From Ectocarpus siliculosus (lineage: Eukaryota; Sar; Phaeophyceae; Ectocarpales; Ectocarpaceae): 53,384 nucleotides of DNA. Made by a program: the position numbers and the translations under genes. The stretch spans positions 571,875 through 625,258 of the forward strand of contig FN648069.1 in assembly GCA_000310025.1 (NCBI GenBank), in the 5' to 3' direction. The notes beneath the pieces were generated by a model. The model was not told the origin of the DNA. It saw nothing but the letters and a program-made list of their open reading frames with translations, and made no database searches. Positions 31,916 through 43,003 of the stretch are shown in pieces. How positions within the stretch are numbered: the first letter of the stretch is position 1; each line of letters starts with the position of its first letter.

Positions 31916-32834
31916 ATATATTTAAACATCAAACACATGATAAGAAAAAGGGAAGGTGGATGCACTCCTTCGAGTCCCTCTGCAACACTTGCGCAGAGTC
32001 AGGCCGAACGGACGATCGTCCCAACAGTCTACACTAGTACCTCCAAAGCAAGTCCAAGTTTCGAAATCAATCGTGCCCGTTCAGTGTGTGCATGAAACTA
32101 CTACTGTAGGCCACGTGATCCCTCGTACGACGACGGCAGGGGGGTGGTGTCCAGTAACTACGACAGCCCACCACCAGAACAACCACAATATGCAACGCAG
32201 ACCACACTCCGAACCCCCAGTCTTGCCGAATAAGTACAAGGGTGTTTGCAGAATAACGAAAACAATACTGTGCGCGAAGAAGCCGCTAGGACCCTCGCGC
32301 TATAGTCTAAGCTCACGTTCACGGCCGTCTGGTGTAGCAACGCGAGGCAGTGCAGGCAGGCGCTAAATTCTAATCTCGGAGAAGCTGCGCTGCTGCTGCT
32401 GCTGCTCAACCACTCCTTCTCCTGCTCCTGTCTCGCCTGCAGTTCCGACAAACAGAAGCACGTTGCGAAAAAAGTGCCGCGTGGTTCGCACGGTGGCCGT
32501 CAAACTGTAAGAAAAAGTGATGGACGAGTGAAAATGTGCTCATTTCGAGATGCCACCAGGCAACAAGCGAAACAGAGGCCGTACAGCAGTGGCGGCTAAG
32601 GTTTACGAGAGGGTCTTGCCAATGTCAACAAGGGTGTGTGATCGAGCAACGAGCCGCTGCCTCAGCCGAGAAAAGGTTGGAACACACAATGCAATGCAGC
32701 GGCATCCAGACCACGAGAGCACCGGTCGGCGCCGTCAGGACCGATTCGAGTCGGGTCGACACCATGACCGACGCATGGACATAAAACAGTCGCCTTTCGC
32801 CCTTCGTAGATACAAACAAAGCGAAGTACACCTC
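31916..32834. other. no gene recognised
   Basis: Only short frames occur. A CTG/GCT microsatellite lies at about 32386-32408. A plus-strand frame at 32550-32882 is Arg-rich and lacks recognisable domains. Confidence 0.35.
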
Positions 32835-33130
32835 TGTTTGGGGCACTTGGATACAAGACTGAAGATCCAATCTGGAGAGTAGACTGTATGTGTGTGGGGG
32901 TTATGCTATTGGAGGTCCAAGTGCGGGGCCCCTCGAGAGAGAGCCCGTGCATGTGTTCAGTCTATGTTCACTGTACTATATGTGTTTGACGTGCTAGAAG
33001 GAGCACAAGTGTGTGATAATCAAGGCTCACATCATCGGCATCGGTCCTGGGTAAACGTAGTCCCCAGATCTATTCATACTACCGTGGGTGGGCACGGTAG
33101 CCCCCATGGGACGGCACGGGGTCCTCTAAC

Positions 33131-33362
33131 ACGATTACCGTAATAGCCAGAGAGATGGCACCCCCGTGTTAGCGGTTCTGTGTAGCGTATTTCTCGACAA
33201 CTAGGGGGTGTGGACACCAACCGATACCTCTCAGGAAAGCTCTCGACGAGATAATTCCAAAACTACCCTTGTCGGCAGTGGTATCCCCGTGGTTGTGGAG
33301 AAGTAAGCTATACAGAAACGCTTACACGGTGGTGCTATCTGTCCGACTATTACGGTAATCGT
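33131..33362. mobile_element. 232-bp palindromic MITE next to the left LTR
   Basis: ACGATTACCGTAATAG at 33131-33146 is perfectly complementary to 33347-33362. The complementarity continues imperfectly inward for roughly 75 bases per arm (AGAGATGGCACC… against …GGTGCTATCTGT), so nearly the whole element folds on itself. TCTAA lies just outside each end, offset by one base on the left. It starts exactly where the left LTR appears to stop. Confidence 0.65.
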
Positions 33363-33377
33363 TCTAAAAGGCGACCG

Positions 33378-33710
33378 ATGTCGAATGCACAAGATGCCGC
33401 GGACAGGGTGGCAGCAGCTTCGGAAAGGGCAGCAGCAGCGGAAAGGGCCGCGAGAAAGATTTACTGTTAAATTCAACATTGTGATGGAAAGGATCACGGC
33501 GCGAATGTTGGTATGGCAGGTGGGGTTCAAGCTGGGAAAGCAGCTGGGGGTCACGCTAGGAAGGCAGCGAAGGGATTTGATACCGGAGGTGGGTCCGGGA
33601 GATTAGACAGCGGCGGAAGGGCCCGAACGCATGAAGCGAGTGCGCGAACACATGAAAAATGTTTTGAGAGGGGAAGAAGCCCCATGTGTATGGCGGACAC
33701 GAACAGGTGA
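33378..33710 (+). pseudogene. broken gag-like ORF
   Basis: An ATG at 33378 opens a frame with one internal TAA (33468) and a final TGA at about 33710. It starts MSNAQDAADRVAAASERAAA, is Ala/Arg/Glu-rich and then Gly/Ala/Lys-rich. Downstream in other frames are a Cys/His segment (SCHNYVLRGHCPYQH) and glutamine-rich stretches from CAG runs up to about 34400. This composition suits a retroelement nucleic-acid-binding structural protein, but no defined domain is recognised. Confidence 0.35.
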
Positions 33711-34975
33711 CGAGAGGTCTGCCGCAGAGCAGCTGCCACAACTACGTCCTTAGAGGGCACTGCCCGTACCAGCATCAGCAGAAAGCAGCTGGTGCCCAAC
33801 GAACGCCCTTCCGCTGCCCTCGGCGGTGGAACGTTTCGGGACTGTGGAGGTTCTCCTCGTCAGCAGCAGCATGATCTACAGCAGTCGTGCACAGGTGTTC
33901 CCGTGCAGCAGCCGTTCCAGCAGCAGCAGGCACACGGCGGGTTTGGCAGATTTTGTGGGTTTCATCAGCAGCCGCGGTAACAGCAGCTGCTGGCAGCCGG
34001 CCCCACCGGCGGTGCGGGTGGACAGGTGAGTGGTGCGGTGTCTGTTGGTGAGAACGGGGGGGGGGGCTGCTACCGCTTCGTCTGTGGCGTCTTTGCCGGT
34101 AAAAGCCCCCGCCAACGTAGTTTCTCTCAGCGCAGTTACACACCCCGCCGCTCATTCTCCCCCGCGACCCACCACGACATCACGTGTAGCACCTGCAGTA
34201 GCGCGGAAACGCGAAGAGCTGTATCTCATGGAGGCCGGGTACGGTAGAGGTGGTGAAACGCGGCAGATTCTCGGGCCGTACCGCGTTGTTGTTGTTTCGC
34301 TGTCCGCGGGATCGCAACAACCCAAACAGTAGTCGCAGCAGCAGCCAGCAGCCTCACCAATGTCATCATCAACAGTACACCATGCCGATGAGATCCGTCC
34401 TGCTGCCCCATCTACAACGGTTGGAGTCTTGTAGATCGGCGGCGGTACTGGCGGCGGCGGTGGAGTGTGAAGAACAGTCGGAAGAAGCGGCAAGAACGAC
34501 GGAAGCAGCAGTGTTGATCCTGGAGGAGCCTGTCGTAAGCAGCAGGAGAGTCGACAGCAGCGGCGTGAAGCGGTGGGGACTCTTCAGATGCTTGGGCGGG
34601 GGGGGCAGCCAAGGTTCATGCGCCGGCACGTGGCGGCGGCAGAGGTGGCCAAACCTGCAGCAGCGGTGGACACGACGGCATCTGCAGTTTTCGAGAGGGG
34701 CGCGAGTGCGAGCGGGGCGAGAATCTACCCTTGTCGGTTTTCCCCCCGGTCCACCCCTCCCGTGCCCCCCACAGCGCCACACCTGCCACGAGCCCCCGGA
34801 AACGGACGCGCCACTAACGCGGGGCGGGTGCAGCGCGATTTGGGGAGAAGCAGTGAAGCGGAAGACGGATATTTGGCTCCTGTGGGCACCCTGGAGTCGA
34901 CCGAGCAGGCGGAGGAAACGGTGGCAGCGACGACCTCACTATATTTCCGCCAAATTGGAGGCCATATGAAATGTT
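33711..34975 (+). other. CAG-rich degenerate sequence
   Basis: CAG runs are frequent and give glutamine-rich peptides in one frame (QQQHDLQQ, QQPFQQQQAHGG). Stops occur in all frames every 60-240 codons. It is probably decayed interior of the LTR element. No enzyme motif was found on either strand. Confidence 0.4.
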
Positions 34976-35449
34976 AACGAGTTTGTTTGAGTTTTGTGTG
35001 GACGCATTGGCGTGTTAAGTTCACGTTGTTGTTCTTTGCATCTTTCTTTTTTGTTCCCTGTCGAGCGCACTCTTCCCGTTGCGCAGAAGGCGATAATTCA
35101 TCCAGGAATCGCCTCCGAGAGACAATGCGTTGATTATGCGGCATTCTTGTTTGTGTTTGTTTTTGTTATTAGTATTTTCTTAGTTTTTCAGGGTTGACTT
35201 GATATATTTTGGACCCGAACTTTGTGTGTTTGTACTGTCAAGAACCATGGGGGGGGATCTGTGTACCATGTTTCTAGCCGCCGTACCAGCCGAGCAGAGT
35301 ACATTTTTCGTGGAGTTCTGTTCAAGTTGGATTTGTTTTGTTATGATGTTCTCTGCGTTTTCTTCGTTCTGCTGTGTGTAGCGTCAAGAATCAGGGGGAG
35401 GAAATGTGTTGTCATGATTCCACACGCACCATCAGCGAATGCATTGATG

Positions 35450-35765
35450 TTCTTCTTTTTGTATGCAGGGCATGTTTCAGCTGGGGGGCTGTTTCGTACA
35501 CGTTGATGTTTTGAGACCTCCTGTTGATTGAGAAGGAGAGAAAGAAAGCGCAGGCAGATCTACATGTTTGTTTCTGGGAAATGTTCCAGCCGGGGGGCTG
35601 TTACGTATTAGTATCTTGACATTGGTATTGACAATGTTGTCTTGTACCAAACCAGTGAGAGAAGGGAGGCACAGATTTATTTTTTCGGGAAATGCTGCAG
35701 CAGGGGGCGCTGTTTGCTTGACTATTTCTGTTCTCTATTGTCTCTTGGACAACAGCTGAGGCACC
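35450..35765 (+). repeat. three diverged ~110-bp repeats
   Basis: Three sections starting near 35455, 35568 and 35680 share the pattern TTT(C/T)NGG(A)AATG(T/C)TNCAGC(C/A)GGGGGCTGTT and lie 110-115 bases apart. The conserved GGGGGGCTGTT string also appears immediately before the LTR copy at 39840, so these may be duplicated polypurine-tract regions of the LTR element. Confidence 0.45.
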
Positions 35766-36647
35766 GATTTGTAGGGTTTGTTCCTTGAACACACGTTGGA
35801 GGGAAGGGTTGACATGTTTTGACGAGGAATAGTCTTCGTACTTTCCGAATGCTCGTTTTGGTTGGTCAAGAAGTTGAAACTTAGTTTTGTTGAGAGGATG
35901 TTGTGTCAACTCTTTTAAAGCAGTTTTTCAAGATTTGTCCGTCACCGTTCCGACTCTTTTCTTCTGATAAGCGCAGATATTGTCTAGACGGTTTGAGATC
36001 ATATCCAGGGGCGAATACATTGGATTCGTGGATAACCGGATGGAAACGCTTTTTACTGCGTAGCCAGCTTTGTAGAGGATGTTTCTCAAGTGGTGATTAT
36101 TCACAAAGGAAGTCCAGATCGGGCATTGTATCAAGTACGGGTGCTGTTTGGTGTACTTGGATATAATATCCGATCTGGAGAGTATATGTGTGTGGGGGTA
36201 CGCTATTGGGGATCCCAGTGCGGGACACCTCGAGAGAGAGCCCGCGCATGTGTCGGTCCTGGGTTAACGTGTTGGGATAGCGGCATGTAGTATCGAAAGA
36301 AGCGTAGAACAATATGATTGGACATTTTGAATGTCAGGACTGTTGTTCTGCAGAGTTGTTGAACGGTCATACATTTCGGAAATATGTACAATGTTCCTTG
36401 GTCTTTACTGGAAGGTTGTAGGAATATTCTTAATGGATTGTGCATTGGTACCCTGACCGTATTCTTAGTGGATAGTGCACTAGCCCGAGGATTCATGGTA
36501 CGTTGTGAAGTACGTTAGCTCCTGTTCCGAATTAGTGTTCTGCTTTCATGCGTTGATCGGGCGACATGGCTGGTGGTGCTGTGCTCACCACCACGCCCAC
36601 TTCACCAGCAAACCTTCTCTTTGGACCAAGGTCTCACTACTACAACA

Positions 36648-37922
36648 TCATTTCCCCAGAAGCCACGAGTTTACCAACATAATGAAGTCCCCAGGTCTAT
36701 TCATACTACCCGCGGGTGGACACGTTAGCCGCCGTGGGAAGGCACGGGGACCTCCAACATCCTCCTCACCTCGAGCCAAATTAGCTGCGGGCCCATTCAC
36801 TCTCCTTCGTTTTGTCACGAAGCCCACAAAGGGTCCCGCTACCGCAGCCGTGTCATCGGCTGAAAGGATGCTTCCCGCAGAAGCAGTACCCGGTGTTCTC
36901 GCTCCTTCTTCTTGCTTTACTGTGTCATTCTCTGCCGGGCTCCTCCTTTTGCGCACACCGTTCCCCTTCTTCTGATTATGCATAGAAACCATCCCCTGCG
37001 GAGCGTGCCGGGCACAGAAGACCCTGTGTCTGGTCCCTGGCTCGCCGTACGACGGTTCCTTGTAGCAATCTTGGTGCCTACACCTCCGCCTCCTGCTCAC
37101 GTTGACCATCCCCTCCAGTCGGTGCTGGGCGCAGAACTGGGGCTTTTTGCTGCCCTCGGCGGCGAATGATGGGTACTTGAAGCAGCCGGAGTGCTCGCAT
37201 TTTTTGGAGACAACGTCCACCATCCCCTTCGAAGCGTGCCGCGCGCAGAACTCACCCCGTTGGGCGCCTGGGGACGCATAGGACGGTTTTGTCCTGCAGC
37301 CCTGGTGACTGCATACTCTACGACCGACGACCACCATTCCTGGAAGACGGTGTTCGCTGCAGAACGACGCTCTCTTGTCGCCGTCTTTGCCATAGGACGG
37401 ACCCTTGTTGCAACCTGGGTGAGCGCACCGCTTGCTGAACACGTCGACCATCGTCGGCGACGCGTGAGCGAGGCAGAACTCTGCCTTCTTCGTTCCGGGC
37501 GCCCCGAACGACGGCTGCTTGGTGCAGCCTTGATGGCTGCATCTCTTCGAACGAAGGTTAGCCATCCCCGAAGGCGCGTGTGCCGAGCAGAACTGAGCAT
37601 TTTTGCTGCCTTCCACGCCGTACGATGGGTGCTTGGGGCAACCCGGGTGAACACACCGCGTAACGCTGACGAGGTCGACCATAGAACGGGGAGCGTGCGG
37701 AGCGCAGAACTCGCGTTTCTTGCTACCCGCCGCGCCGAACGACGCCACTTTGCCGCAACCTTCGTGCCCGCACCTGGCGTTTTTTTTCTTGTCAATCATG
37801 CGGTCATCCTGGACATGACGGCCGCAGAACTCCGGCTTATTGCATGGCATACCAAATATGGCTTCCCTGGTGCAGTCTGGATGACGGCACCTCGTTTTTT
37901 GTTTTGTTTTCCCGACAACCAT
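36648..37922 (-). CDS. EsV-1-7 domain protein with eight repeats
   Basis: This single-exon gene gives 424 residues from the ATG at 37922. The open frame continues 50 codons upstream, but without another ATG. Eight tandem repeats with first Cys at residues 12, 51, 90, 128, 166, 204, 242 and 281 follow C-x4-C-x15/16-C-x2-H, with spacing of 38-39 residues. Typical units start CSHQGCTKQPSFG and end EFCLAHA. This is the EsV-1-7 motif, named after a gene of the Ectocarpus virus EsV-1 and known from IMMEDIATE UPRIGHT, which controls basal-cell fate in Ectocarpus. The conserved Cys/His suggest metal binding, but the molecular function of the family is unknown. A basic stretch (VRKRRS near residue 323) and KRRR (near 370) could be nuclear signals. 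The last ~37 residues are encoded by LTR-derived DNA. It is transcribed away from the Vms1 gene. Confidence 0.85.
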   Translation of the reverse strand: MVVGKTKQKTRCRHPDCTREAIFGMPCNKPEFCGRHVQDDRMIDKKKNARCGHEGCGKVASFGAAGSKKREFCAPHAPRSMVDLVSVTRCVHPGCPKHPSYGVEGSKNAQFCSAHAPSGMANLRSKRCSHQGCTKQPSFGAPGTKKAEFCLAHASPTMVDVFSKRCAHPGCNKGPSYGKDGDKRASFCSEHRLPGMVVVGRRVCSHQGCRTKPSYASPGAQRGEFCARHASKGMVDVVSKKCEHSGCFKYPSFAAEGSKKPQFCAQHRLEGMVNVSRRRRCRHQDCYKEPSYGEPGTRHRVFCARHAPQGMVSMHNQKKGNGVRKRRSPAENDTVKQEEGARTPGTASAGSILSADDTAAVAGPFVGFVTKRRRVNGPAANLARGEEDVGGPRAFPRRLTCPPAGSMNRPGDFIMLVNSWLLGK

Positions 37923-38656
37923 TTTCTTCGGGGACGATCCGGCGCCGCGCGGCTGCTGCTGTGTCGTGAAGGCGTGTGGTGGTGGCGCGCTGTTGCTGGT
38001 GATGGACGGCGTGGGGCGTGGTTCGTGGAGATCCCTGTTGCCTTTTTTTAGCTGATTGATGTGTCCCGTCACCGCGACGGGGTCTCAGTGTTAACAAATC
38101 ACGCGTGCAGACGATCTTGTTTACTGCTGTGTTTGGGATCTCTTACCCGGTAAGTCCAAGCTCACAGTCAGAATCGACGGATGTATATGCTCTTTGTTCG
38201 AGACTCTGATCGGAAGTTACCAGTGCCCGTGTTTTCGGTCTAGGTGGTCCATGTTGCCGCAGTTCCAGGTCTCTAGTTTTATTTTTCATACAGTACACCA
38301 TGAATGAGACCATGAGCGCGCGGAGCCCCCGTTCATAATCTGAAGCAATTCTTTGACTGTTGACTGTTGAGGTAGATGTAGCTTCAACCTGTGTCGAACA
38401 TGCACACACATACCCGCGGTTGATGCTACTATAATGAAAACGCTATGAATTCATTGCTAATCTGTCTCCGACTCTTTCTATGATAGAGATGGATTCGTTG
38501 TGTCAAAAAAAAAACACACACCCACCTACGGAACTTGAGAACCGTTCCGCAATTCCTGGTGACTGTTGCAATTGCGCCGCATTTTTTCAAGCGAGAGGAC
38601 AGCACCAGCAACACCACCAGCACCAGTCTCCTTCTCGCTACCTCCTCCACCATAGC
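37923..38656. promoter_or_regulatory. shared divergent intergenic region
   Basis: This ~0.7 kb separates the start codons of the EsV-1-7 gene (minus) and the Vms1 gene (plus), so both promoters and 5' UTRs must lie here. The part next to 37922 is open in frame with the EsV-1-7 gene and may be 5' UTR or an undetected coding exon. I see no obvious TATA box. The assignment as promoter rests on position only. Confidence 0.4.
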
Positions 38657-41600
38657 ATGTCGAGTGCGAACCACGGTACCACTGCTCTGAAAGAAACCTC
38701 GCGCTTCCCCACGATGGATGCCTTCCTAGCGCCGTTCATCAAGTCTGCGAGGGACAAGAGGCCAGGGAGAAGAATCAAAGGCCAGGCGGAGGGCGGCAGC
38801 GTGGTGGTGTCCATCTTCGACATCCCGGCTGGCTTGCTCGCAGGCGCCAAGCCGCAAGATGGAGCCTTGCCGCCTTCTGTGGGTCAGGGACCGGCGGCGG
38901 CGGCAGGGTCGAGGACAGGCTCCACCGACGCCCGCAGCGATGGCGCTGTCGCCCCTGCCGCTGCGAGGGGGCTCACCTGTATTCGGTGCGGGCTCAAGTT
39001 TGGCGATGACCGAGCAGCGCAGGTGCAGCATTTCAAGTCCGCCCTGCACATGGCCAACCTGCGCCGGCAGCTGGCCGGCAAGCCTCGCATTTCTCAGGCG
39101 CAGCTAGACGATGAAACGGCGGCAGCAGAAGCAGCGGCAGCAGCGGCAGGCGACGGGGACACGGGGTCGGGGGCAGCAGCTGGAGCGGAATCGTCGTCAT
39201 CGGGCACGGACAGCGATGAAGGACCGGGCTCAGTTGGCGCCACCGAACGGGGTCTTGACCTTGATGGAGTGGAGGAAGAGGAGGACGCAGGCGACGGCGG
39301 GCTTCTCTCCACCGTGGGCGGAGGCGGCGGGGCCGAAAACGGCTACCCTGAGAGAGGGAGGGTGAAAGTAGACTTTTCGCTCCAGGAGGGGCCGAGGTTG
39401 ACGTTCGTGCCGCGGGGCTCCGCGTGGGCCTTCTCTTTGAGCTCCGCCGCGCTGGGCATGGAGCGTGGGGACGACCCTTGGGGGCGCCTGGATAGCCTGG
39501 TCGGCACCGAGGGGGAGAACCGTCTTTGGGCCGTAGTGATCCTCAGGAGCGGCAAGTTCGCTGCTGCGGTGTTCGAAGGGCAGGCTGTTGTATGCCACAA
39601 GGTTTTCCGGAGGTGCGAAAAGTGTATATACGGTGGCAGCAAGGACGTGTCGCGTTAGATACCCCCCCCCCACCTGGACCGCACTCCAAGCTGCGTTACT
39701 CCACGATGAAAGAGCTCTCGACGAGGCGGTTCCATCGCTGCCATTTTCGGCATTGCCATTTGGTTTTTTTGTTTTTGTATTGGTTGGAAGATTATTCACA
39801 AAAGACTTCCAGATCGTATGTTGTATCAAGCAGGGGGGCTGTTTGGGGTACTTGGATACAGGATCCGATCTGCAGAGTATGCGTGTGGGGGGTATACTAG
39901 TGGGGGTCCAAGTGCGGGGCCCCTCGTGAGAACCCGCGCATGTGTTCACTGAAACAGGACTTGTGCTGACTTCGGTCCGTGCTGGAAGAGCACGTATGTG
40001 TATTGATCAAGGTTCATATCATCTGCATGGGTCCCTGGGTTTAACATAGTTCCCAGACAGACGTCATACCGTGGGCGGGCACGGCAACCTCCGTGGGTGG
40101 TCACGGGGGGCATACTAACACCTTTGTTTTGTGCTACAGAATAATCCAGCTGTGAAAATCGATCCATGTGGTACGGCATCTTGTACTTCCTGTATACCCG
40201 TACGGTCTGTGCGTCGGTGTTCCCGCTGCTGTTACAAAAGGAGTTTTGAAGTCCACCTCACTTCCCTCTCCGCTCTATACCTGCGCGCTGGTGCATCTAA
40301 CTCCTTTTCGCCACACTTGTAGGTACACCATCCGAGCGAAACGAGGCGGGTCTCAGTCTTCCTACGACAGCGGTGGGAGGAAGGCGCAGTCTGCCGGGGC
40401 AGCGCTTCGGCGGTACGGGGAACAGGCGCTACGGGAGGACGCGAGGGCGCTCTTGAAGGAGTGGGAAGGTCCGCTCAAGGTGCGCCCGAGCTTTTTTGTA
40501 CCTCTCCCTTTGTTTGCTTGTCCATTTCACTGCCGCGCTCCTGCCTTTGTTGCCGCCCAGAACTCTGAAGACCTCTGATAGCTGGTTTGAGAACAGGTAG
40601 GTGCGGATCGTGGGTGTTGCATTTGAATTTTCTTGAGCAGGATACCTGCTAAGCGCGGTTGGTTTCGAGCCCCCTGTTAGCTTGCCACCGTCATCGCGAC
40701 TACTGTGTTGCCTTTTTTGTGCGCCCGGCTATCCAGGTAGCGACACAAAGAACTGTTTGACCCATGCCCCACTCCGTCAATCCCGATGGCTGTCCTGTCA
40801 AACACGCACTGCTCGTGTTTTTTTACCCCGCTACAAGATTGACGTATTTTCATTGGTCAGCCGGTGAGCGCGATCGGTGCTAATTAAGAAAAAAAACATA
40901 CACACACACACACACCCGCTCCCTCGATGGCTCTCCCGTGCATTACTCTAATTTCTCACGATGCCGGCGCCCACCTCGAACATGAACGTTTCCCCAGGCC
41001 TGCCGCGTGGTCCTTACCTCCGTCCCGAAGGGAATGCGAGCCGTCCTTTTCGACGGCAAGGAAGCCCCGTTCAACAGGAAAGACGCCCGTCTCCGCCCCG
41101 TTCCGTTCGCCGTCGGCAAGCCGGTCTTCGAGGAAGTCGTCGCCGTCCACACGCGCGTAACGTCGATCGTGTTCTCGGATGCCGTGGCTGTCCCCGCCGG
41201 TGACCCTGGGCCCGCGAGCAACACGGAGGGGAGCGGCAGAGATAGCGTCAGCAGCAAGCAGGCGAAGAAGCAAGCCAAGGCGACGGCGGATGTGGCGGGC
41301 CCGCCGGTCGCTCGAAATTTTGACGAGGAGGCGTGTCCGCCTTCGGTGGAACTCCTAGAGGCGTGCGAGCAAGGTGACGTAGACGCGGCGGCGGCGCTCC
41401 TGGACCGCTTGGACCTGACCGCAGCGGCGGCGGTAGTGGGAGATGCCCGCGGTGCCGGCGGCGCGGCAGCGGGAGCGGCGGCAACCGGTTGGACGGCAGG
41501 GGAGATTCTCAACCACCCCGACGGGTTCGAGCGGCTCATGACCCCGCTGCACGTTGCGGCGGCCGGCGGGCACGTGGCCGTCCTCGGCGTGCTACTCGAG

Positions 41601-43003
41601 AGAGGCGCTAGCCCCCTGGCGGAGGACGTGCGTGGGAGAGTGCCGTATCTGCTGGCTCCGAACAAGGATACCCGGGATGCGTTCCGGCGGGCGCGGGCCG
41701 GGCAGCCGGAGAGATGGGACTGGGACGCGGCCAGAGTGCCGGAGCCGTTGACAGAGGTGAGGAACAAGAGAAACGCCAAAGAGTAGTGGAGACGGGGACT
41801 TGGGGGTGAGGTGTAGTGTATTTGATAAGCCGGCAACTTCTGTGTTTGTTTTTTCTATCTTGATCAGAAAGGAAAGAGGCAGGTGCAACAAGTAATTGAT
41901 GTCTTCTTTTGTCTCCGAAATGTGGAACCTGAGCGGGTGCGCGGTTTTCCTATTTTTATGTGCTGCGGAGAAAACGAGTTTTTATCGCAATGCGTGCGAA
42001 CCCACGATTTCGCGTCCTAAAACTCTGATGTTGGGGAACTGGCTGCTGCTGCCGCTGATTGGTTCAGGAGCTCGAGCTGCGGAAGAAGGAGAAGCTCAAG
42101 GAAAAGGAGAAGGAGAAGAAGCGGCGAGCGAAGCTGCGAAAGAAGGCCGAGAAGAGCAAGGCCGAAGAGGAAGCTCGGCAAAAGAAGGTACGCCTTTCTT
42201 TGGAGGAGCGTGAGAAAATAGAAGATCAATGTTGCTCTGTGCGCGTGCTCGCAATATATCTACGATAGTACAGATCGCGCCACAATTGAAGAACCTGGGA
42301 GTTCAGACATTCCGTCTCCAGTAAAATAGAAGTCTACGGACTTCGACCATAAGCACAGGTTTGTAATTTTGTAATCCTACACTAAAACATATGTAGTCAC
42401 TGTTGGGTTACCCTACAGAGGAAGTAAGAAACCAGCCTCAGACAGTACGAGTGTATTTTGGTGGTGGCGTCGTGTGTATGGTACGAATTACTTATTTTAT
42501 GACGCCGAGGCGTCGTTCTACCGCCGTCGCCCTGTCCGTTGCTGCTTAAAAAACCGTCGAAACGGCACGCGCTTCGGCCTCCTGTCGTGGCTGCTGGTGT
42601 CACCCACCCCTCGCCGCTTTTACTTTCCCTACTGCGGTGGCTTCCTCCGCAACAACCTCCCCGCCCCCCCCCCGCCCCCCCTTCCGTTCCTTCGTCTGCG
42701 TCGCCCCGCGGACAGCCTTCGATGCCAACTGATTTTTTTTTTTGCTACTCAACTTCGTCGCTTCTCGTCTCCCCCACCCAGGAGAAAGAGGACGCGGAAG
42801 CCGAGGACAGGCGCAAGAGGGGTCTGGCGGCCGCGGGGCACTGCGACGCGTGCGGCAAGGCGTTGGTAGCGAAGAAGGCGTTCAGCCGCTTCGAGTTCCG
42901 TTACTGCAGTACGGACTGCGCCAACCTGCACAAGCGAAAACTCGCGGCAGACGCCGCAGAGCGAAGGTTTAACGGCGGCAGCGGCGGGGTCGGGCAAAAG
43001 TGA
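38657..43003 (+). CDS. VMS1: ANKZF1/Vms1 family peptidyl-tRNA hydrolase
   Basis: The exons are 38657-39612, 40323-40479, 40998-41756, 42068-42187 and 42782-43003; all phases agree and give 737 residues. An upstream in-frame ATG at 38480 is possible but adds low-complexity sequence. Vms1 cleaves peptidyl-tRNA on stalled 60S ribosomes in ribosome quality control and works with Cdc48/p97. The domains appear in family order. An N-terminal SIFDIP block is near residue 52, and a C2H2 finger uses Cys108/111 and His125/131. The VLRF1 domain starts near 289 (WAVVILRSG); its GGSQSSYD motif places the presumed catalytic Gln near 330, and it continues in exon 3. Ankyrin repeats lie near 487-580 (TPLHVAAAGGH), followed by a Lys/Glu coiled coil in exon 4. 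The C-terminal CxxC…CSTDC zinc finger is at about 685-710. The p97-binding VIM looks degenerate (RRKRGLAAAG). Intron 1 holds an LTR fragment. Confidence 0.9.
39784..40120 (+). mobile_element. LTR fragment in Vms1 intron 1
   Basis: The sequence from 39840 to 40120 matches the LTR at 32835-33131 (TGTTTGGGGTACTTGGATAC at the start, ACTAACA at the end). The ~50 bases upstream (ATTATTCACAAA…CAGGGGGGC) match the interior just before the LTR at 36145. It is therefore a fragment containing the element's 3' end, not a clean solo LTR. Confidence 0.65.

What the first reader, a model, noticed from the sequence alone, without database searches (positions are those of the whole stretch)
36648..37922. EsV-1-7 protein with eight tandem repeats
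The sequence shows eight successive C-x4-C-x15/16-C-x2-H units at a 38-39 residue period. Members described for Ectocarpus, such as IMMEDIATE UPRIGHT, have about five. Repeat number and the long basic C-terminal half make this a distinct family member that could be a developmental regulator of unknown mechanism. The regular spacing suggests a repeated metal-binding fold.
Basis: partly seen in the sequence, partly recalled or inferred. Interest (0 to 1): 0.8.

Follow-up and report, generated by a model that had tools for sequence, protein, structure and literature searches.

The report
Eight-finger EsV-1-7 protein, brown-algal family
This is a genuine gene for a protein with eight metal-binding repeats, an ordinary-sized member of a large, little-understood brown-algal gene family, and its less-noticed tail carries small motifs shared with several relatives that hint at a regulator working in the cell nucleus.

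Summary
The eight repeats are real: Pfam PF19114 (EsV_1_7_cys) matches at E = 2.1e-116 in eight stretches. Eight is not unusual: of 69 loci read in the same genome, 68 held 2-22 repeats in their best open frame, 20 of 68 eight or more. The closest paralogue (67% identity) also has eight. Each window unit is most identical to the same-numbered paralogue unit (8 of 8), 32 of 32 Cys/His ligands are kept and dN/dS is 0.46: an old, constrained array, not misassembly.

Corrections: the basic C-terminal "half" is a quarter of the ORF and no more basic than the repeats; the 424-residue product is probably a wrong gene model, since paralogue similarity stops at a shared AG|GT site and a candidate exon lies 4.3 kb downstream.

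New: the tail carries a SUMO-consensus site (VKQE) and PFVGFVTKRRR. PFxG recurs in 7 of 31 long tails, psi-K-x-E in 6 of those 7, one found after the motifs were fixed. Best reading: a nuclear poly-zinc-finger regulator; function is inferred. New member of a known family.

The parts
36770..37922 (-). Exon 1 (coding): start codon, eight EsV-1-7 units, and the conserved part of the tail; ends at AG|GTGAGG
   Evidence: ORF; Pfam PF19114; paralogue similarity ends here
37005..37889 (-). Eight C-x4-C-x15/16-C-x2-H units (37815-37889, 37695-37772, 37578-37655, 37464-37541, 37350-37427, 37236-37313, 37122-37199, 37005-37082)
   Evidence: motif coordinates; collinear with the paralogue
36909..36920 (-). 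VKQE, SUMO-consensus psi-K-x-E site in the tail (residues 335-338)
   Evidence: psi-K-x-E in 12 of 31 long tails against a shuffle mean of 1.7; its meaning as a SUMO site is recalled knowledge
36801..36833 (-). PFVGFVTKRRR, recurring C-terminal motif with a basic, nuclear-localisation-like end (residues 364-374)
   Evidence: PFxG in 7 of 31 long tails against a shuffle mean of 0.33 (coordinates)
36648..36769 (-). Last ~39 residues and stop of the 424-residue ORF, probably intron, not product
   Evidence: no similarity to the paralogue beyond the shared donor-like site
32437..36769 (-). Predicted 4,333-nt intron (2,263 nt in the paralogue), enlarged by a dispersed repeat
32363..32436 (-). Candidate exon 2 after CTGCAG|GCGAG: spliced frame reads GETGAGEGVVEQQQQQRSFSEIRI then TAG; paralogue GETRPAGEGVVEQQQQPSISEVRI then TAG
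   Evidence: lies in a block of 88% DNA identity with shared acceptor-like site and stop; frame support weak

Best explanation
The gene encodes a nuclear poly-zinc-finger protein of the EsV-1-7 family. Each ~38-residue unit folds separately around one metal ion, probably zinc, held by its Cys, Cys, Cys and His; eight units in a row form a basic array that most likely binds nucleic acid. The tail adds a nuclear-targeting basic motif (KRRR within PFVGFVTKRRR) and a SUMO-acceptor consensus (VKQE), which would let it recruit partners and adjust gene expression. Shown here: the array, its family, its collinearity with and constraint against a paralogue, and recurrence of the tail motifs. Inferred: metal identity, nuclear location, nucleic-acid binding, SUMO attachment, the two-exon structure and any developmental role.
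For: Pfam PF19114, E = 2.1e-116, eight stretches. 32 of 32 ligand positions identical to the paralogue, against 176 of 272 other aligned repeat-region positions. dN/dS 0.456 over 381 codons (22 of them in candidate exon 2), bootstrap 95% 0.34-0.63; 0.25 over 23 codons around PFVGF to the donor. By identity every window unit is closest to the same-numbered paralogue unit, 8 of 8. Tail motifs in 31 long tails: psi-K-x-E in 12 (shuffle mean 1.66), PFxG in 7 (0.33), neither count reached in 5000 shuffles; controls: reversed E-x-K-psi in 2 of 31, psi-R-x-E in 0, psi-K-x-D in 0, psi-K-x-[QNS] (three letters pooled) in 5. The two motifs occur together: 6 of 7 PFxG tails have psi-K-x-E against 6 of 24 others, Fisher p = 0.007. 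L071, fetched after the expressions were fixed, has both. Unit model mean pLDDT 87.1. Literature, passages only: an N-terminal EsV-1-7 domain on a Mariner transposase (PMC12477816), a usual place for a DNA-binding domain (recalled); EsV-1-7 proteins hypothesised to be zinc-finger transcription factors (PMC12629598).
Against: No direct evidence of DNA binding, zinc, nuclear location or SUMO attachment. No solved relative by fold: best Foldseek E = 5.5, and 1 of 6 chains at Z >= 2 in the second look; phmmer against the PDB gave none. The whole-protein model failed (mean pLDDT 33.8). The tail expressions were chosen after seeing six tails, and related tails are not independent (two close pairs). 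19 of 31 long tails lack psi-K-x-E and 24 of 31 lack PFxG. Homology searches with three tails did not find the more distant PFxG tails at E <= 0.001, so that resemblance rests on short motifs alone. Window units 5, 6 and 7 score higher against units of other arrays than against the paralogue. Candidate exon 2 has dN/dS near 1 over 22 codons, and another frame shows more silent changes.
Confidence: 0.45

Rival explanations
1. The array is a protein-protein interaction scaffold: each zinc-stabilised unit presents a surface loop to protein partners, and repeat number sets valency. Nucleic acid is not bound.
For: Small zinc repeats often mediate protein contacts (recalled). Among 360 units of 50 arrays the Cys/His frame (required by the search expression) stays the same while other positions vary, which fits either use.
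Against: The array is strongly basic (56 K/R against 23 D/E in residues 1-317); the domain is reported at the N-terminus of a transposase (PMC12477816, passage); a basic motif recurs in some tails.
Confidence: 0.25
2. RNA rather than DNA is the ligand: a Cys-Cys-Cys-His array reads transcripts and acts after transcription.
For: The ligand set resembles CCCH fingers, many of which bind RNA (recalled); the array is basic.
Against: Ligand spacing differs from classical CCCH fingers (recalled); no CCCH family was among the three listed at E <= 1.
Confidence: 0.15
3. The gene is a product of repeat-driven or mobile-element expansion with no cellular role, like the homogenised, frame-broken arrays of the same genome.
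For: The family is very large here (150 matches scored out of 880 candidates); several arrays contain stops; a transposon carries the domain (PMC12477816, passage).
Against: dN/dS 0.46 with 95% range below 1; 32 of 32 ligands kept; unit-by-unit collinearity with the paralogue; arrays with long tails, such as this one, are less homogenised than those without (mean 46% against 58% unit identity, 22 against 30 arrays, p = 6e-5).
Confidence: 0.1

Closest known systems
IMMEDIATE UPRIGHT (IMM) of Ectocarpus
   Same: Same repeat family; tandem 38-residue cysteine-rich units (PMC12853178 passages; PMC7457493 passages).
   Different: IMM has five units in its C-terminal region; here eight units begin at residue 12 and a short motif-bearing tail follows. 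IMM has at least four exons (mentions exons 3 and 4); here two are predicted. No IMM sequence was at hand, so the two were not compared letter by letter.
Paralogue L002/L013 at G000:C2:6581189-6582256
   Same: Eight collinear units, 67% identity over residues 9-386, same tail motifs (IKLE, PFVGFVTKRRR), shared donor- and acceptor-like sites and candidate exon 2.
   Different: Shorter tail between IKLE and PFVGF, smaller intron with different insertions. In the 14 kb of window and 9.9 kb of C2 compared, similarity is confined to the gene, a short stretch just upstream and a few hundred bases downstream.
EsV-1-7 gene of virus EsV-1
   Same: The family shares its motif with it (PMC7457493 passages).
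   Different: No relative confirmed in viral contigs by two scans or in phages; the viral gene itself was not compared, and these collections may not hold it.
WRKY19 zinc finger (Pfam PF24906)
   Same: Weak match, E = 2.5e-5 for the whole protein; 6 of 6 EsV-1-7 arrays scanned match at E <= 0.01.
   Different: Below the curated cut-off (24.4 against 27 bits), best stretch 11 residues. The same six arrays also weakly match five unrelated Cys-rich or other families in 1-2 members each, so composition may explain it; lead only.

Membership tests
EsV-1-7 family (Pfam PF19114) | Profile match over the curated cut-off | tested here: met
   379.8 bits against 25, eight stretches
EsV-1-7 family (Pfam PF19114) | C-x4-C-x16-C-x2-H spacing in tandem ~38-residue units | tested here: met
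   seven of eight units x16, one x15; period 38-39; x16 in 319 of 360 units of 50 arrays of the genome
EsV-1-7 family (Pfam PF19114) | Expanded family in a brown-algal genome | tested here: inconclusive
   150 scored matches in G000, but G000 is unnamed and its species was not established
EsV-1-7 family (Pfam PF19114) | Binding of zinc | not testable with these tools
   models carry no metal; 32 of 32 ligands conserved in the paralogue
IMM orthologue | Five repeats in the C-terminal region | tested here: not met
   eight repeats starting at residue 12 against IMM's description
WRKY19 zinc finger (PF24906) | Profile match over the curated cut-off | tested here: not met
   24.4 bits against 27
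Known zinc-finger folds in the PDB | Structural match of one unit | tested here: inconclusive
   best Foldseek E = 5.5; one of six chains at Z = 2.5

The most novel reading that the evidence does not exclude
A subset of EsV-1-7 proteins, with 2 to 22 fingers in the open frames read, shares one tail module (SUMO-acceptor site, then PFxG with a basic end) and works as SUMO-dependent nuclear repressors. The large, variable finger family would be the brown-algal counterpart of animal KRAB zinc-finger proteins, with arrays kept distinct in long-tailed genes and homogenised elsewhere, aimed partly at transposons or integrated viruses.
Probability: 0.1. Interest if true: 0.8.

Novelty: new member of a known kind. 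Interest (0 to 1): 0.35.

Why it matters
EsV-1-7 proteins include one known developmental regulator (IMM), but the passages I saw call its function unknown or hypothesise a zinc-finger transcription factor. A recurring tail module gives a concrete handle: a predicted modification site, a predicted nuclear signal and an unexplained PFxG core can each be tested, and editing in brown algae is now practical (PMC12853178, passages). It also suggests that repeat number is a poor way to sort the family, whereas the tail may be a better one.

Tried and rejected
Repeat number as a distinguishing mark: rejected, since 14 of 68 loci exceed eight. Misassembly: rejected. Viral or phage relatives: none confirmed in two viral-contig scans or the phage collection; this does not show absence. 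Proviral setting: 20 ORFs of the window (117 of 100 aa or more were listed) scanned with Pfam gave hits at E <= 0.01 only for two, both parts of the VLRF1/ankyrin neighbour. Whole-protein structure without an alignment: useless (pLDDT 33.8). A three-unit alignment came out in mixed register and was not used. Fold searches found no clear solved relative. The idea that the last 39 residues are transposon-derived was dropped: matches to the dispersed repeat begin at query position 507 (40 of 574 candidates scored), so that stretch lies outside it. The PFxG group as one lineage by its repeats: not supported, since most of its units find their best match outside their close pair in other arrays (which examined six of the seven; L071 not). 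Finding more PFxG tails by homology: three single-tail searches found none beyond close relatives at E <= 0.001. Macaisne et al. 2017, the founding paper, is not held, so I cannot say whether the tail motifs or repeat counts are already described; papers were sought (and WRKY19, none). Only passages were seen of PMC7457493, PMC12993054, PMC12629598, PMC12477816, PMC6368402, PMC12853178 and PMC10112911; other papers appear only in search listings.

Full report
Observation. The minus-strand ORF from 37922 to 36648 encodes 424 residues with eight C-x4-C-x15/16-C-x2-H units at a 38-39 residue period. Pfam PF19114, EsV_1_7_cys, matches at E = 2.1e-116 in eight stretches; the two other families listed, WRKY19 zinc finger and zf-MIZ, are below their cut-offs. 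No solved structure matches by sequence at E <= 1.

Is eight unusual? The window lies in G000, an unnamed 189-Mb genome of 492 contigs with at least 150 EsV-1-7 matches (150 of 880 candidates scored). I did not establish the species. The protein finds 130 matches there (99 of 273 candidates scored). I read the open frame with most repeats in 69 loci; L051 had none, and L008 and L013 (second cuts of loci already counted) and L054 (fetched for another family) were left out beforehand. The 68 remaining have 2-22 units: 20 have eight or more, 14 more than eight, six exactly eight. These loci were mostly chosen by similarity to the window protein; degenerate units and units split off by introns or stops are missed; so this is a survey of relatives, not a census. 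Eight is ordinary.

The paralogue. The closest relative, at C2:6581189-6582256, is 67% identical over residues 9-386 and also has eight units. By identity every window unit's best partner among the paralogue's units is the same-numbered one, 8 of 8; compared by score with all loci, window units 5, 6 and 7 score higher against units elsewhere, so collinearity is clear but not equally strong for every unit. All 32 ligand positions are identical, against 176 of 272 other aligned positions. By the Nei-Gojobori method dN/dS is 0.456 over 381 codons (bootstrap 0.34-0.63), 0.43 in the repeats (320 codons), 0.61 in the tail with exon 2 (61 codons), and 0.25 over 23 codons around PFVGF to the donor. 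The array is therefore older than the duplication and under constraint.

Gene model. DNA similarity between the two genes stops at AG|GTG after residue 384 and resumes downstream in collinear blocks. One block, 88% identical, contains a shared CTGCAG|GCGAG acceptor-like site and, in the phase set by the shared donor, an open stretch ending in a shared TAG: exon 1 36770-37922, intron 32437-36769, exon 2 32363-32436, total 408 residues. Weak points: over 22 codons exon 2 has dN/dS near 1, and in the aligned block the spliced frame has one silent and three replacement differences while another frame has three and two. Other similar blocks in the introns carry gaps that are not multiples of three, so similarity alone does not mean coding. 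I treat the donor as likely and exon 2 as a candidate. The intron holds a dispersed repeat with direct terminal repeats at 32897-32956 and 36194-36253.

The tail. Reading the ends of relatives showed a recurring motif, PF(V/L/M)G followed by a basic run, often preceded by psi-K-x-E. In 27 long tails (55 residues or more after the last unit), psi-K-x-E occurred in 11 and PFxG in 6, and neither count was reached in 5000 shuffles. After 18 further loci were fetched, 31 long tails gave 12 and 7 (shuffle means 1.66 and 0.33, again 0 of 5000); one of the four new long tails (L071) has both motifs. Controls on the same 31: E-x-K-psi 2, psi-R-x-E 0, psi-K-x-D 0, psi-K-x-[QNS] 5. Of seven PFxG tails six have psi-K-x-E, against 6 of 24 others, p = 0.007. 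Cautions: the expressions were set after seeing six tails; two close pairs (L001/L002, L023/L034) are counted separately; L071 has RR in place of KR; L007 lacks psi-K-x-E; some 'tails' hold further degenerate units, off-frame sequence or, in L060, unread letters. That psi-K-x-E is the SUMO consensus is recalled, not tested. Most repeats of the six such proteins examined are not each other's best matches outside the close pairs, so shared descent of tail and array together is not shown. Single-tail searches found, at E <= 0.001, only the query locus and, for two of three, its close pair, so the wider resemblance rests on short motifs.

Two kinds of array. Among 52 arrays of four or more units, the 22 with long tails have less similar units (mean 46% identity) than the 30 without (58%), p = 6e-5; a short 'tail' can also mean a broken frame or an intron. 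The window gene ranks 15th of 52 from the most diverse.

Structure. One unit with the other seven as its alignment folds with mean pLDDT 87.1. Foldseek's best of five matches has E = 5.5 and the second look gave one of six chains at Z = 2.5, which is inconclusive. The whole protein alone gave pLDDT 33.8.

Neighbourhood. Divergently, 38480-39658 and 41007-41786 on the plus strand carry parts of a VLRF1 release-factor domain (E = 0.0024, below the cut-off, and 3.2e-7, above it), the second also an ankyrin repeat, which fits an ANKZF1/Vms1-like gene (name recalled). No viral domain appeared among the 20 window ORFs scanned.

Literature, passages only. PMC12853178 describes IMM as having five repeats in its C-terminal region. 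PMC12629598 speaks of 90 EsV-1-7 domain proteins in Ectocarpus species 7, hypothesised zinc-finger transcription factors. PMC6368402 reports ten members among generation-biased genes, enriched in the sporophyte-biased set. PMC12477816 reports a Mariner transposase with an N-terminal EsV-1-7 domain. The founding paper is not held.

Verdict. A genuine, conserved member of a known family whose repeat number is unremarkable. The best-supported mechanism is a nuclear poly-zinc-finger regulator, confidence 0.45. What may be new is the shared tail module, whose absence from print I cannot claim.

Noticed in passing
window 38480-39658 and 41007-41786 (+): Parts of a VLRF1-domain and ankyrin gene, ANKZF1/Vms1-like (name recalled), lie divergently upstream of the EsV-1-7 gene.
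   Followed up: partly
window ~32831-36254: A dispersed repeat of about 3.4 kb with 60-nt direct terminal repeats 87% identical (32897-32956, 36194-36253), inside the predicted intron.
   Followed up: partly
window 33131-33362: A ~230-nt inverted-repeat element with 78-nt arms, 83% complementary, nested in that repeat; matches many places in the genome in both orientations.
   Followed up: partly
L034 (G000:C18:3587000-3591000): An open frame of 970 codons with 22 EsV-1-7 units and the PFMG tail motif; L023 on the same contig is a 14-unit relative.
   Followed up: partly
G000:C3:1978822-1979280 (L060): EsV-1-7 units inside an open frame listed as 4,887 codons; the fetched piece reads as X over a stretch, so it contains gaps or withheld letters.
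   Followed up: no
L054 (G000:C8:476104-476178): The only WRKY19 zinc-finger match listed in the genome (150 of 159 candidates scored); EsV-1-7 arrays weakly match that profile, a lead to a distant relationship.
   Followed up: partly
L010, L011, L016, L018: Arrays split over several frames or carrying stops, possibly decaying copies.
   Followed up: no
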